DNA of 64,000 nt from an uncultured Eubacteriales bacterium. GTDB taxonomy: Bacteria > Bacillota > Clostridia > Christensenellales > CAG-138. Of this stretch, positions 12,619-55,584 are shown piece by piece (the stretch's first letter is position 1; every line of letters starts with the position of its first letter). The DNA is taken from positions 1-64,000 of the forward strand of contig CADBYI010000004.1 in the NCBI GenBank assembly GCA_902798825.1, written 5' to 3'. Under the pieces are notes generated by a model. It had not been told where the DNA came from. It did not search any database and saw only the letters and a list, made by a program, of their open reading frames with translations. The translations under genes and the position numbers were made by a program.

Positions 12619-12639
12619 CAAATCGCCATGGGCGATTTG
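12619..12639. repeat. CAAATCG-ended hairpin, copy 1
   Basis: CAAATCGCC/GGCGATTTG stem with loop ATG, in the livJ-livH gap. The ends CAAATCG and CGATTTG recur at 44159-44190 with a longer, different stem tip. Confidence 0.6.
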
Positions 12640-12681
12640 CCTTCCTTACATAAATATTTCTTGATCATCTAAACGCGTCCG

Positions 12682-12792
12682 ATCCGGCGACATGCGCGCG
12701 CGGATACAAGACCGCGAAGCGTTCTTGCGACACCTTGCAGGTCCCGCCGCCCGGTAAACCGGGGGTTTATAGGCGGGACCTGGAAGCGAAGC
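12682..12792. repeat. Dispersed structured repeat, family X, copy 1
   Basis: ATCC/GGAT hairpin with loop containing GCGACATG, then CCTTGCAG, a 9-bp stem GGTCCCGCC (12740-12748)/GGCGGGACC (12772-12780) enclosing an inner hairpin TAAACC/GGTTTA, then CTGGAAGCGAAGC. The same order and conserved blocks occur at 44039-44131, where the inner stem is ATACGCC/GGCGTAT. Stem changes are compensatory, so the fold is what is conserved. Confidence 0.7.
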
Positions 12793-12830
12793 CTCAGTCT
12801 GTAGAAACCGCAGGTTTCTGCGGATGTGAA

Positions 12831-16169: not shown

Positions 16170-16180
16170 TATAATATTTT

Positions 16181-16316
16181 GCCGCTTTTTCTCTTTGGAG
16201 AAAGAGGAAAAAGCGGCGCAAAAAGAGAAATCAAGAAGGGGAAGATGGTATTTACACGAACCATTGACCCCTTCTTAAAAGTTTTTTGGGGCACCCTTTT
16301 TTACAAAAAAGGGTGC
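16181..16316. repeat. Composite three-hairpin repeat, copy E1
   Basis: Type A hairpin 16181-16217 (GCCGCTTTTT/AAAAAGCGGC), middle hairpin 16233-16276 (AAGAAGGGG/CCCCTTCTT), linker TTAAAAGTTTTTTGG, type B hairpin 16291-16316 (GCACCCTTTTTT/AAAAAAGGGTGC, loop AC). Same order as copy E7 at 55446-55584. The type B stem differs in sequence from other copies but pairs perfectly. In this intergene it may also terminate both convergent genes. Confidence 0.7.
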
Positions 16317-28596: not shown

Positions 28597-28775
28597 TCTC
28601 GTCTGACAGCTCTCCGCCCCCGGGGGGCGACAGTGCGGCGGATGTTCTCCGCCGCCCCGGACACGAACTCGACCAGGCCGTCTCGTCCGCTCCTCGGCGG
28701 GCCTCCCTTTCCCTCCCCCCTGTGCCTGCAGCGGGGGGAGCTACTCTTGAGGACCGCGACCTCTATCATGAGTAT
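28597..28775 (-). ncRNA. Lysine riboswitch (L box)
   Basis: On the minus strand the conserved L-box blocks occur in order: AGAGGTCGCGG, AAGAGTA, GGGAGGGAAAGGGAGGC, CGCCGAGG, CTGGTCGAG, and GGAGAGCTGTC near the 3' end. The spacing and five-way junction layout match lysine aptamers such as that of lysC. It lies between a good promoter and the NhaC-family gene. Expected: lysine binding favours the downstream terminator. Confidence 0.9.
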
Positions 28776-37978: not shown

Positions 37979-39199
37979 ATGAAAACGAAGCGCGCATTTC
38001 CCCGGATCACGGTGAACAAAAAGGCGGAACAGAGCTTGAGAAGCGGCCATCCCTGGGTCTACGGGGCCGAGGTCTTGGAAAAGGAGCCCTGCGAAAACGG
38101 GGCCGTGGCCGACGTGTTCAGCGAGAAGGGGACGTACCTGGGCAGCGGGTTTTACAACGACCAGAGCAAGATATTGGTCCGGGTTCTGTCGAAGAACGCC
38201 AACGACGCCTTCGACGAGGCCTTCTTCCGCCGCCGCATCCGCTACGCCCTCGACTATCGAAAGACCGTCATGGGGGAGGACTTCTCCGCCTGCCGCCTGA
38301 TCTTCGGGGAGGCGGACGGGCTCCCGGGCTGGACCGTGGACCGGTTTGAAGATGTGCTGGTGACGGAGAGCCTGTCCCTGGGCATCGAGGTCCGCAAACA
38401 TATGCTGTTCGCCCTCCTCCAGGAGGAGCTCGGGCGGGACGGCGTTTCCATCGACGCCATCTATGAGCGGAACGAAAGCCCCCTCCGGCTCAAGGAGGGC
38501 TTGCCCCAGGGCAAGGGCTATTTTGCCCTGCCGGGTCTTAGGATAGAGGGCAGCGGCCTGGTGGAGATCGTGGAAAACGGCATCCGCTACGAGGTGGACT
38601 ATGTGAACGGCCAGAAGACCGGCTTCTTCCTGGACCAGAAGTACAACCGCCGGGCGGCGGCCAGGCTGGCAAAGGGCAAGCGGGTGCTGGACTGCTTCAC
38701 CCACACGGGCGCTTTCGCCCTGAACTGCGCCAGGGCCGGGGCCGCGTCCGTGACGGCGGTGGACGTGTCGGCGCTGGCCCTTGAGGAGGTGAGGCGCAAC
38801 GCCGCCCTGAACGGCCTCGACCTGACGCCCCTGCAGGCGGACGTGTTCGACCTGCTGACGAAGCTGACGGCCAAAAGGTGCCGGGACTACGACTATATCA
38901 TCCTGGACCCGCCGGCCTTCACCAAGAGCAACGCCACGGCCAAAAACGCCTTCAACGGCTATAAGCAGATCAACCGCATGGCCATGAAGCTGCTGCCAAG
39001 GGGCGGGTATCTCGCCACCTGCTCCTGTTCCCACTTTATGTATGAGGACCAGTTCCGGCGGATGCTGCTGGAGGCGGCCCAGGAGGCGGACGTGACCCTC
39101 CGCTTCATCGAGCAGCGGCAGCAGGGGCCGGACCACCCCATATTGCCCACTGTGCCCGAGACCTACTATCTGAAATTCTATCTGTTGCAGGTGCTGTGA
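37979..39199 (+). CDS. RlmI-like rRNA large-subunit methyltransferase
   Basis: 406 aa. N-terminal PUA domain (SLRSGHPWVYGAEV), then a Rossmann methyltransferase with DQKYNRR, motif I VLDCFTHTGAFAL, motif IV LDPPAFTKS and the late TCSCSHFM. Family: class I SAM-dependent m5C methyltransferase of 23S rRNA (YwbD/RlmI). Starts behind AAGGAG. The stop overlaps the next start (TGATG). Confidence 0.93.
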   Translation: MKTKRAFPRITVNKKAEQSLRSGHPWVYGAEVLEKEPCENGAVADVFSEKGTYLGSGFYNDQSKILVRVLSKNANDAFDEAFFRRRIRYALDYRKTVMGEDFSACRLIFGEADGLPGWTVDRFEDVLVTESLSLGIEVRKHMLFALLQEELGRDGVSIDAIYERNESPLRLKEGLPQGKGYFALPGLRIEGSGLVEIVENGIRYEVDYVNGQKTGFFLDQKYNRRAAARLAKGKRVLDCFTHTGAFALNCARAGAASVTAVDVSALALEEVRRNAALNGLDLTPLQADVFDLLTKLTAKRCRDYDYIILDPPAFTKSNATAKNAFNGYKQINRMAMKLLPRGGYLATCSCSHFMYEDQFRRMLLEAAQEADVTLRFIEQRQQGPDHPILPTVPETYYLKFYLLQVL

Positions 39200-39768
39200 T
39201 GATCACGAGAGACGAAGCCGTCGCCCTCATCGAGAGGCTGTTAGAAACCAAGGAGCGGGTGATCGTGGCCCTGGACGGTATGTCCTGTTCGGGGAAGACC
39301 ACCTTCGCCGCCCAGCTGGCCCAAAAATTTTCCGGTTCCGTGGTCCATATGGACGATTTCTTCCTGCCTGCGGACCGGTTCACGGAACAGATGCAGGCCC
39401 TGCCCGGGGGCAACATGGACCGGGCGCGGTTTCAGGCGGAGGTCCTCTCCCCCCTGGCCGCCGGTGCGGACTTTTCCTATGCCCCCTTCTCCTGCAAGGA
39501 GCAGGCCCTGCTGTCGGATAAAACTCAAGTGACCGGCCGTCTCATCGTCGTGGAGGGGGCCTATGCCCTGCTGCCCGCCTGGGGCCGCTATTGGGACCTG
39601 AGCCTCTTTTTGCAGGTATCCCAAGAGGAACAGCAGGGGCGGCTCCTGCTCCGCAACGGGGCCCGAGGCATGGTGCCCTTCCTCAAGCGCTGGATCCCCC
39701 GGGAGGAAACCTACTTCGCCGCCTGCCACGTCCGCAACAGATGCGACCAGATCGTGGACGGGGAATAA
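39199..39768 (+). CDS. P-loop kinase of the uridine-kinase-like family
   Basis: 189 aa. Walker A DGMSCSGKTTF, then VVHMDDFFLPADRFT (the Asp-Asp substrate site of uridine kinase-like proteins), a lid region RLLLRNGARG and IVVEGAYAL. It may phosphorylate a nucleoside or other small alcohol; exact substrate unknown. ATG at 39199 overlaps the previous stop by one nt (TGATG), hence coupled to the methyltransferase gene. Confidence 0.85.
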   Translation: MITRDEAVALIERLLETKERVIVALDGMSCSGKTTFAAQLAQKFSGSVVHMDDFFLPADRFTEQMQALPGGNMDRARFQAEVLSPLAAGADFSYAPFSCKEQALLSDKTQVTGRLIVVEGAYALLPAWGRYWDLSLFLQVSQEEQQGRLLLRNGARGMVPFLKRWIPREETYFAACHVRNRCDQIVDGE

Positions 39769-43906: not shown

Positions 43907-44038
43907 GGTTGTTTCCTCTCTTTCTTCTTGACACTATGTTTGCCTAAATACCGGTTTTATGCGCTCACCGGGCAACGCAAGCGCGGTGTAGCCGCGCGCA
44001 CGCTGCCATCGAAGGAAGAACGCACGGCTGAAATCCGT

Positions 44039-44131
44039 CAAATCCAGCGACATGTGCGGTGGATTTGACTCCTTGCAGATCCCGCCGCCCGATACGCCGC
44101 TGGCGTATAGGCGGGAACTGGGAGCGAAGCG
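44039..44131. repeat. Dispersed structured repeat, family X, copy 2
   Basis: CAAATCC/GGATTTG hairpin (44039-44067) with GCGACATG in its loop, CCTTGCAG, stem TCCCGCC (44080-44086)/GGCGGGA (44110-44116) enclosing ATACGCC/GGCGTAT, then CTGGGAGCGAAGC. Matches copy 1 at 12682-12792 with compensatory stem changes. Lies between the thrS T-box and the thrS start. Confidence 0.7.
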
Positions 44132-44158
44132 AATGCGGAGCACCCGCCACAGCGACCT

Positions 44159-44190
44159 CAAATCGTTGAAAACCTGTTTTCAACGATTTG
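44159..44190. repeat. CAAATCG-ended hairpin, copy 2
   Basis: A 15-bp perfect stem (44159-44173 with 44176-44190, loop CT). Shares the ends CAAATCG/CGATTTG with the hairpin at 12619-12639. Confidence 0.6.
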
Positions 44191-44194
44191 AATG

Positions 44195-44406
44195 AAAAAG
44201 CCCCAATGTCCGAAAGGACACTGGGGCGCTGTTGCGCGGTTCCACCCAAGCTTATCACTCGCATCCGGCGATACGGGGCCGGTCCCCCTCCGGGTCGCCG
44301 GGCGGTCTTCCCCTCCCGCTCCCTGCGCGCCTTGCAGCCGACGAGCGCGCTCTCTGACAGGTCACGGACGAGTGAGGGTACTGCTTCCCGGGTCCTTCCC
44401 GAAATT
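44195..44406 (-). ncRNA. T-box leader of thrS
   Basis: Minus-strand T-box sequence GGGTGGAACCGCG (about 44235-44247), terminator GCCCCAGTGTCC/GGACATTGGGGC (44200-44227) followed by TTTTTCATT, and a specifier-loop context GAAG-ACC (ACC, Thr, at 44304-44306). Uncharged tRNA(Thr) is expected to stabilise the antiterminator and allow thrS transcription. Confidence 0.9.
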
Positions 44407-49391: not shown

Positions 49392-49523
49392 CCCTTTTCC
49401 TGGCAAGAAAAAGGGCAAAACGAACGGTAAGAAGGGAGTATGGCTTCGGTATACTCCCCATTATTATTCTTAAGTTTCTCTTTTTCCGCCGCTTTTTCTA
49501 TTTGTAGAAAGAGAAAAAGCGGC
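49392..49523. repeat. Composite hairpin repeat, copy E6
   Basis: CCCTTTTCCTGGCAAGAAAAAGGG-type hairpin (49392-49415), GGGAGTAT/ATACTCCC hairpin (49434-49458), ATTATTCTTAAGTTTCTC linker, and type A hairpin GCCGCTTTTTCT/AGAAAAAGCGGC (49488-49523). Middle and type A parts match copy E5. Confidence 0.7.
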
Positions 49524-53859: not shown

Positions 53860-54115
53860 AATCGAAACGAAGGCTGTGAAGGAAAGAGTAGGCGGCGCAA
53901 GGTCTCAAGAGAGCACCCGGCCGGTGGAAGGGTGCGGCGAACGCCACCGAAGTACATTCCGGAGCCGCTGCCCTGAACGCAGAGTAGGGGCAGACGGGTG
54001 CGCCCGATACAGCGTCCAAGGAGAGGCGGGTCCCTGCGGGGGATCGTCTGAATTGAGGTGGTACCACGGCTATTGTCGTCCTCTGTTCCCGAAAGGGAGC
54101 GGAGGACGTTTTTTT
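53860..54115 (+). ncRNA. T-box leader of tyrS
   Basis: T-box AGGTGGTACCACGG at 54056-54069; terminator CGTCCTC...GAGGACG at 54077-54108 followed by seven T residues; AGAGTA-type boxes near 53887 and 53983; specifier context GAAG-TAC with TAC (Tyr) at 53953-53955. The GAAG before the specifier is the same as in the thrS T-box. Confidence 0.92.
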
Positions 54116-55434: not shown

Positions 55435-55445
55435 CGATATGTTCT

Positions 55446-55584
55446 GCCGCTTTTTCTTTTCGTGAGGAAAGAAAAAGCGGCGCAAAAAGAAAAGTCAGGA
55501 AAGATAAGAGGGAAGGTGCTACAAAAGCATCTTCCCTTTCTTAAAAGTTCTTTTTGGTTCCTTTTTCTTACAAGAAAAAGGAAC
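55446..55584. repeat. Composite three-hairpin repeat, copy E7
   Basis: Type A GCCGCTTTTTCTTT/AAAGAAAAAGCGGC (55446-55481), middle GGGAAGGTGCT/AGCATCTTCCC (55510-55536), linker TTAAAAGTTCTTTTTG, type B GTTCCTTTTTCTT/AAGAAAAAGGAAC with loop AC (55557-55584). Same A-middle-B order as E1. Also acts as terminator between convergent tyrS and the aminotransferase gene. Confidence 0.75.

What the first reader, a model, noticed from the sequence alone, without database searches (positions are those of the whole stretch)
12619..12792. Family X structured repeat shared by the livJ-livH gap and the thrS leader
Conserved blocks GCGACATG, CCTTGCAG, TCCCGCCGCCCG, TATAGGCGGGA, CTGG-AGCGAAGC recur at 44039-44131 in the same order, with the inner stem changed from TAAACC/GGTTTA to ATACGCC/GGCGTAT and the outer ATCC stem lengthened. 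Both loci also carry a CAAATCG...CGATTTG hairpin. Conserved loops with variable stems are the mark of a structured RNA or protein-bound DNA element.
Basis: seen in the sequence. Interest (0 to 1): 0.7.

Follow-up and report, generated by a model that had tools for sequence, protein, structure and literature searches.

The report
Structured mobile repeat targeting terminator hairpins
The two matching stretches are copies of a small, protein-free jumping DNA element with a conserved foldable core, about a dozen per genome in uncultured gut and rumen Clostridia, which lands on or next to gene-ending hairpins and sometimes duplicates them; this exact family appears undescribed, although its likely mover is a known kind of transposase.

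Summary
The two window copies belong to a dispersed repeat: 12 copies in this genome, over 110 in 12 congeneric genomes, hundreds in the family, scattered through the order. No Rfam family matches. The core is two hairpins with conserved loops (GACATGYGC; GCCCGG...TATAGGC) joined by CCTTGCAG. Pairing covaries strongly: 97% of cells paired, 15 of 27 pairs with two-sided changes, 0/500 shuffles. G-T outnumbers A-C in hairpin 2 (37:10), favouring the + strand, antisense to livJ/livH and thrS, so it is not their leader. It is mobile: ten congeners lack it at thrS. Intact relatives end in short inverted repeats (CAGnnTGTCAAAAAA) and are flanked by 23-36 bp direct duplications that contain, and usually equal, a palindrome, mostly a terminator hairpin. 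Best explanation: a MITE-like passenger moved by a structure-targeting IS1182-type transposase. IS1182-family IS1272 is published to target stem-loops, and one IS1182 element in the order has CAGACTGTAGACAAA ends beside a terminator. Mobility and structure are shown; the transposase is inferred, none being found in this genome; the core's function is unknown. The CAAATCG hairpins are not homologous.

The parts
43925..44192 (+). Copy 2: full-length element inserted between the thrS start region and the T-box terminator (left edge approximate)
   Evidence: Absent from the same site in 10 congeneric genomes; core 104.5 bits
43964..43980 (+). Conserved 5' block CTCACCGGGCAACGCAA of the g1 form
   Evidence: Alignment of congeneric copies
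43981..43997 (+). hp0, 5' hairpin GCGCGG-TGTAG-CCGCGC
   Evidence: Covariation: score above all 500 shuffles, 3 of 6 pairs changed on both sides
44037..44069 (+). hp1, stem GTCAAATCCA/TGGATTTGAC with conserved loop GCGACATGTGCGG
   Evidence: Covariation
44071..44078 (+). Conserved linker CCTTGCAG
   Evidence: Nearly invariant in 23 copies
44076..44120 (+). hp2, stem with conserved internal loop GCCCG / TA and inner stem TACGCC/GGCGTA
   Evidence: Covariation; G-T 37 versus A-C 10
44121..44157 (+). GGAGCGAAGCGAATGCGGAGC tail of the g1 form and optional ACCCGCCACAGCGACC segment
   Evidence: Alignment
44158..44191 (+). hp3, 3' terminal hairpin TCAAATCGTTGAAAA..TTTTCAACGATTTGA (region of the 3' terminal inverted repeat)
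   Evidence: Hairpin scan; 3' inverted repeat enriched over shuffles across copies
12671..12830 (+). Copy 1: 5'-truncated, degenerate element between livH and livJ (edges approximate)
   Evidence: 67.5 bits, E 5e-13; orthologue in G008 (L012/L208) with the same truncation
12677..12731 (+). Degenerate hp1 with inserted hairpin module
   Evidence: Comparison with L239 and L242
12738..12782 (+). hp2 of copy 1
   Evidence: Sequence; family fold
12793..12826 (+). hp3 of copy 1, ending about 5 nt before the livJ stop codon (gene on the opposite strand)
12619..12640 (.). livH-side hairpin CAAATCG..CGATTTG; NOT part of the element
   Evidence: Present with other stems in congeners, including one with no element

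Best explanation
Family X is a non-autonomous mobile element (MITE-like, about 200-270 bp) with short imperfect terminal inverted repeats (5' CAGnnTGTCAAAAAA; at the 3' end the complement, folded into a terminal hairpin) and a conserved internal core of hairpins that is maintained as a single-stranded fold of one strand. A transposase supplied in trans, most likely of the IS1182 family, recognises the ends and joins them to the feet of a stem-loop in the target, typically an intrinsic terminator. [quoted passage not shown] in other cases no duplication remains. Shown here: dispersed copies, empty sites, covarying structure, inverted-repeat ends, long palindromic duplications. Inferred: the IS1182-type transposase, the strand-joining chemistry, and that the core works as RNA (or ssDNA) rather than being passive.
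For: 12 copies in this genome, over 110 in the genus, 47 of 103 family genomes, 15 of 297 order genomes. Empty thrS site in 10 congeners; empty C12a and C12b sites. Covariation 0/500. Flanking duplications of 26-35 bp that are terminator-like hairpins in G237 (L275, L276, L278, L279) and G357 (L284), and 23-36 bp palindrome-containing duplications in sister-genus copies L096, L150, L173. Chance control: left-right alignment score of 28 or more in 5 of 118 self pairs versus 0.2% of mismatched pairs; one of the five (L148) is a palindromic repeat common in these genomes. Inverted-repeat ends: at the 3' end 59 of 119 copies fit the repeat with 2 or fewer mismatches versus 0 shuffled. An IS1182-family IS (NF033551, E 1e-106) with ends CAGACTGTAGACAAA / TTTGTCTACGGTCTG abuts a terminator-like hairpin. 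[quoted passage not shown] A sequence-unrelated short element with the same ends also duplicates terminators, including one in this genome (L188:2583-2829).
Against: No IS1182 transposase was found in this 93%-complete draft genome, in the other 11 congeners, in G237 or in G357 (insertion sequences are often lost from MAGs). Most IS1182 elements seen in the order end in GGGGCTGTnGCAAAA, not CAG, and L316 itself shows no duplicated hairpin. The window copies show no duplication and no clear 5' inverted repeat. Only a minority of copies keep a duplication. No autonomous IS examined carries the core.
Confidence: 0.64

Rival explanations
1. The core is a functional RNA (a transcribed small RNA or 3'-UTR regulator) spread by transposition and then kept by selection at each site; mobility is history, function is regulatory.
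For: Orthologous copies in different species keep the fold; hp1 changes in such pairs are mostly compensated; core identity 0.91 versus 0.75 for the adjacent spacer and 0.86 for the neighbouring gene. The 3' end lies within 15 nt of the stop codon of the opposite-strand gene in 65 of 115 copies.
Against: Several sites are species-specific and empty in close relatives; no promoter or expression evidence; copies were found by an exact motif, which biases identity upward; gene conversion between copies could also preserve pairing.
Confidence: 0.2
2. A passive MITE whose hairpins are only by-products of a palindrome-rich sequence and of a transposase that likes hairpins.
For: Palindromic ends and insertions of other repeats into loops; many other palindromic repeats in these genomes.
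Against: Loops and linker stay nearly constant while stems covary, and the loops recur in distant genera; wobble pairs show a strand bias; passive sequence would decay in loops as fast as elsewhere.
Confidence: 0.1
3. An element of the IS200/IS605 or REP/RAYT kind, moved as single-stranded DNA by a Y1 transposase.
For: Terminal hairpins, strand-specific fold, intergenic location.
Against: No Y1_Tnp match in this genome or in 9 of its 11 congeners, all of which hold copies; terminal inverted repeats and long target duplications are not features of that mechanism (own knowledge).
Confidence: 0.03
4. A HEARO / OMEGA-type guide RNA (of IscB or TnpB) or an IS110 bridge RNA without its protein.
For: Structured, mobile, protein-free copies.
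Against: No Rfam match, HEARO included, at E up to 10 for the window copies and up to 5 for distant copies; loops are constant at targets of unrelated sequence, whereas guide segments vary; long duplications.
Confidence: 0.03

Closest known systems
IS1182 family: IS1272 and TnSha1 (PMC5678879, PMC4923244)
   Same: Targets are stem-loops and transcription terminators with no sequence consensus; one branch of the published model duplicates the stem-loop
   Different: IS1272 was reported to replace or partly delete the hairpin without duplication; it encodes its transposase; no conserved internal structured core is described
Bacterial MITEs (review PMC10969869, seen as abstract only)
   Same: Short, no open reading frame, terminal inverted repeats, target duplication, many copies, empty sites
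   Different: Internal core covaries as an RNA-like fold across an order; target duplication is long (23-36 bp) and contains, usually equals, a palindrome
Structured dispersed repeats such as BOX and RUP (pneumococcus, PMC3049150, abstract only), bcr1 and ERIC (own knowledge)
   Same: Dispersed, intergenic, fold-forming repeats of roughly 100-250 bp
   Different: Different sequence and hosts; I know of no report of whole terminator hairpins duplicated on both sides
IS1202 group (24-29 bp target duplications, PMC10045372)
   Same: Similar length of target duplication
   Different: Transposase not searched for here; no link of that group to terminators in what I read

Membership tests
MITE (non-autonomous DNA transposon derivative) | Short, non-coding, multi-copy, with empty sites | tested here: met
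MITE (non-autonomous DNA transposon derivative) | Terminal inverted repeats | tested here: met
   Intact copies L096, L150, L023, G237; 5' repeat not recognisable in the window copies
MITE (non-autonomous DNA transposon derivative) | Target site duplication | tested here: met
   Met in 8 copies; absent in the window copies
MITE (non-autonomous DNA transposon derivative) | Matching autonomous element | tested here: inconclusive
   L316 has CAG-type ends and an IS1182 transposase, in another family of the order; none in this genome
Mobilised by IS1182 family | IS1182 transposase in the same genome | tested here: inconclusive
   Present in G012, G105, G030; not found in G000, its congeners, G237 or G357; the drafts are incomplete
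Mobilised by IS1182 family | Insertion at stem-loops without sequence consensus | tested here: met
Mobilised by IS1182 family | Transposase acts on these ends | not testable with these tools
   Needs a transposition assay
IS200/IS605 or REP/RAYT | Y1 transposase partner | tested here: not met
HEARO / any Rfam family | Covariance-model match | tested here: not met
thrS or liv cis-regulatory leader | Element on the sense strand of the mRNA and conserved at the site | tested here: not met
   Wobble bias favours the antisense strand; thrS site empty in congeners
IS110 bridge RNA | DEDD recombinase and target-matching loops | not tested
   No search for the recombinase; loops constant across unrelated targets argue against
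IS1202 group | IS1202 transposase in genomes with copies | not tested

The most novel reading that the evidence does not exclude
The core is an active RNA (or ssDNA) part of the transposition machinery: a trans-acting transposase uses the conserved fold, with loops GACAUGYGC and GCCCGG, to choose or capture hairpin targets, making this a structure-guided transposon that reads shape, not sequence.
Probability: 0.12. Interest if true: 0.85.

Novelty: new variant of a known kind. Interest (0 to 1): 0.56.

Why it matters
It gives naturally occurring examples of a hairpin target duplicated whole on both sides of an insertion, an outcome that the IS1272 study drew as a model branch while reporting replacement in its own data, and so makes the question of how a transposase recognises a hairpin testable. 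It also describes a large, unannotated structured repeat family that will otherwise confuse annotation of intergenic regions and gene ends in uncultured rumen and gut Clostridia.

Tried and rejected
Cis-leader of thrS or liv: rejected (antisense strand favoured, empty sites). HEARO and all Rfam families: no match. IS200/605 and REP/RAYT: no Y1 partner in this genome. Phage or plasmid carriage: no match in viral contigs, plasmids or phages. A general decayed target duplication in the AT-rich left spacer (an idea from C12a): the statistical test showed only a few real cases, and intact copies show that the left spacer is part of the element, so I dropped it. Cas1-like integration, suggested by the repeat-length duplication, was considered but not tested. 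The core was not found in autonomous IS1182 elements. One alignment call was a dud.

Full report
WHAT WAS CLAIMED AND WHAT IS THERE. They are there. A pattern search of the whole draft genome (2.28 Mb, 93% complete) gave a third exact match. A covariance model of the 90-nt core, R1, was built from 23 copies, of which the 44 kb copy was one and the 12.6 kb copy was not; it finds 12 copies in this genome and over 110 in the 12 genomes of the genus, and matches in 47 of 103 genomes of the family, all of 11 distant family members picked from those and 15 of 297 genomes sampled across the order (stricter filters, and the weakest of these matches, near E 1e-4, may be chance). Records with names are almost all uncultured rumen or gut Clostridia, one labelled Christensenella sp.; two others (Massilia, a planctomycete) may be chance. 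None were found in viral contigs, plasmids or phages.

ANATOMY. In the window's genus the element runs: a 5' end CAGCTTGTCAAAAAA (L023 intact, L018 with one mismatch to the consensus used), a variable 40-60 nt, CTCACCGGGCAACGC, hp0 (GCGCGG-TGTAG-CCGCGC), a linker with GGAAGAACG, hp1 (loop GCGACATGYGCGG), CCTTGCAG, hp2 (internal loop GCCCG), GGAAGCGAAGCGAAGGCGGAGCC, and hp3, a long near-perfect hairpin ending CAGnCTGA. In other genera hp0 and the tail differ but the hp1 loop, linker, hp2 loop and a terminal hairpin persist. Covariation: hp1 plus hp2, 97.3% of cells paired, 15 of 27 pairs changed on both sides, score 0.389 against 0.141 shuffled, 0 of 500; hp0 score 0.286 against 0.128, 0 of 500. 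Over about 120 copies hp2 has 37 G-T against 10 A-C cells, hp3 40 against 29 under symmetric scoring, hp1 10 against 6: the pairing looks like that of a single strand, the + strand of the window, rather than of double-stranded cruciforms. Related copies are not independent, so the ratio is indicative. Folding energy of the 44 kb copy: z -6.1 on the + strand, -5.0 on the minus strand.

IT IS AN INSERTION. At thrS ten congeners have a short spacer of some 10-20 nt where this genome has about 260 bp. At contig C12 two more copies are missing in most or all congeners; at one of these sites this genome and three relatives carry quite different copies (core identity 0.69, below the paralogue median of 0.76), which suggests independent insertion at one site. 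At liv, G008 has an orthologous copy with the same 5' truncation, G005 a full copy, G001 none.

LONG PALINDROMIC DUPLICATIONS. In G237, in another family of the order, four of eight copies are flanked by direct duplications of 26-35 bp, each a perfect hairpin of the kind that ends transcripts (for example CGGAGCCGGGTTCATACCCGGCTCCG), and one copy in G357 likewise. In the sister genus, L096, L150 and L173 have 24, 23 and 36 bp duplications, each containing a palindrome; that of L173 includes a stop codon. The ends just inside are CAGnnTGTCAAAAAA and its complement in L096, L150 and, more loosely, in G237. In the wider set 5 of 118 copies have left-right similarity at a score that only 0.2% of mismatched pairs reach; one of the five (L148) is a palindromic repeat common in these genomes and may not be a target duplication. 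So duplications are real but survive, or form, in a minority of copies.

WHAT MOVES IT. A search for the same ends without the core found a second, sequence-unrelated short element, again between two copies of a terminator-like hairpin (L096:6230, L099, L133; and in this genome L188:2583-2829, beside a gene whose end reads like groEL). Different passengers with the same ends and target habit point to one kind of transposase. Published IS1182-family elements IS1272 and TnSha1 target stem-loops and terminators irrespective of sequence (PMC5678879, PMC4923244; [quoted passage not shown] IS1182 transposases occur in G012, G105 and G030, which hold many copies, but not in this draft genome. Where ends could be read, most IS1182 elements of the order end GGGGCTGTnGCAAAA or similar; one, L316, ends CAGACTGTAGACAAA, is 1562 bp, abuts a terminator-like hairpin and has an A/T-tract hairpin at its right end like hp3 (IS1182 model of NCBIfam). 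Its reading frame is interrupted by a stop codon. I therefore infer, but have not shown, that an IS1182-type transposase moves family X.

DOES THE CORE DO ANYTHING. Orthologous copies with homologous flanks on both sides keep the loops and change stems mainly in compensated pairs (the exception is the degenerate window copy against G008), and the core is more alike than the adjacent spacer (0.91 against 0.75; neighbouring gene 0.86). Copies were collected with an exact motif, which inflates this, and gene conversion is possible. The 3' end lies within 15 nt of the stop codon of an opposite-strand gene in 65 of 115 copies, which fits insertion beside or in place of terminator hairpins but might also reflect a role at gene ends. 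No autonomous IS examined carries the core. Function is unproven.

VERDICT. A real, order-wide, apparently undescribed structured mobile repeat: a new variant of a known kind (MITE with IS1182-like targeting), with the conserved internal fold as the unusual part. 'Apparently undescribed' rests on Rfam and on the open-access papers searched, not on the whole literature.

Noticed in passing
L188:2583-2829 (G000:C3, about 39007-39253): A second short element in this genome with ends CAGGCTGTCGAAAAA..TTTTTGACAAGCAG, flanked by a near-identical duplicated terminator-like hairpin AGAGGAGCC..GGCTCCTCT beside a groEL-like gene; unrelated in sequence to family X.
   Followed up: partly
L238:959-1233, also L237, L240, L241, L242: A roughly 77-nt repeat (AGGTCGCAATCATAGATTGCTCCCCGCTCCGCTACAAACATGCC..) inserted in the hp2 internal loop of several copies: nested or modular repeats.
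   Followed up: no
window 16180-16218, 49488-49523, 55442-55485; L186:6533-6568: Recurring palindromes around CCGCTTTTTC..GAAAAAGCGG, possibly terminators or another dispersed palindrome family.
   Followed up: no
window 12619-12640: A hairpin upstream of livH is conserved in position with covarying stems across congeners, independent of family X.
   Followed up: partly
window 44219-44405 (-), 53867-54086 (+), 28599-28773 (-): T-box leader of thrS (40 bits, below the Rfam cut-off), another T-box leader, and a lysine riboswitch.
   Followed up: no
L096:6230-6455, L099, L133:4564-4791: A family of 226-237 bp elements in rumen Clostridia with the same ends and duplicated terminator-like hairpins, with its own conserved interior (GGCAGAATTCGCGTTTTC..).
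   Followed up: partly
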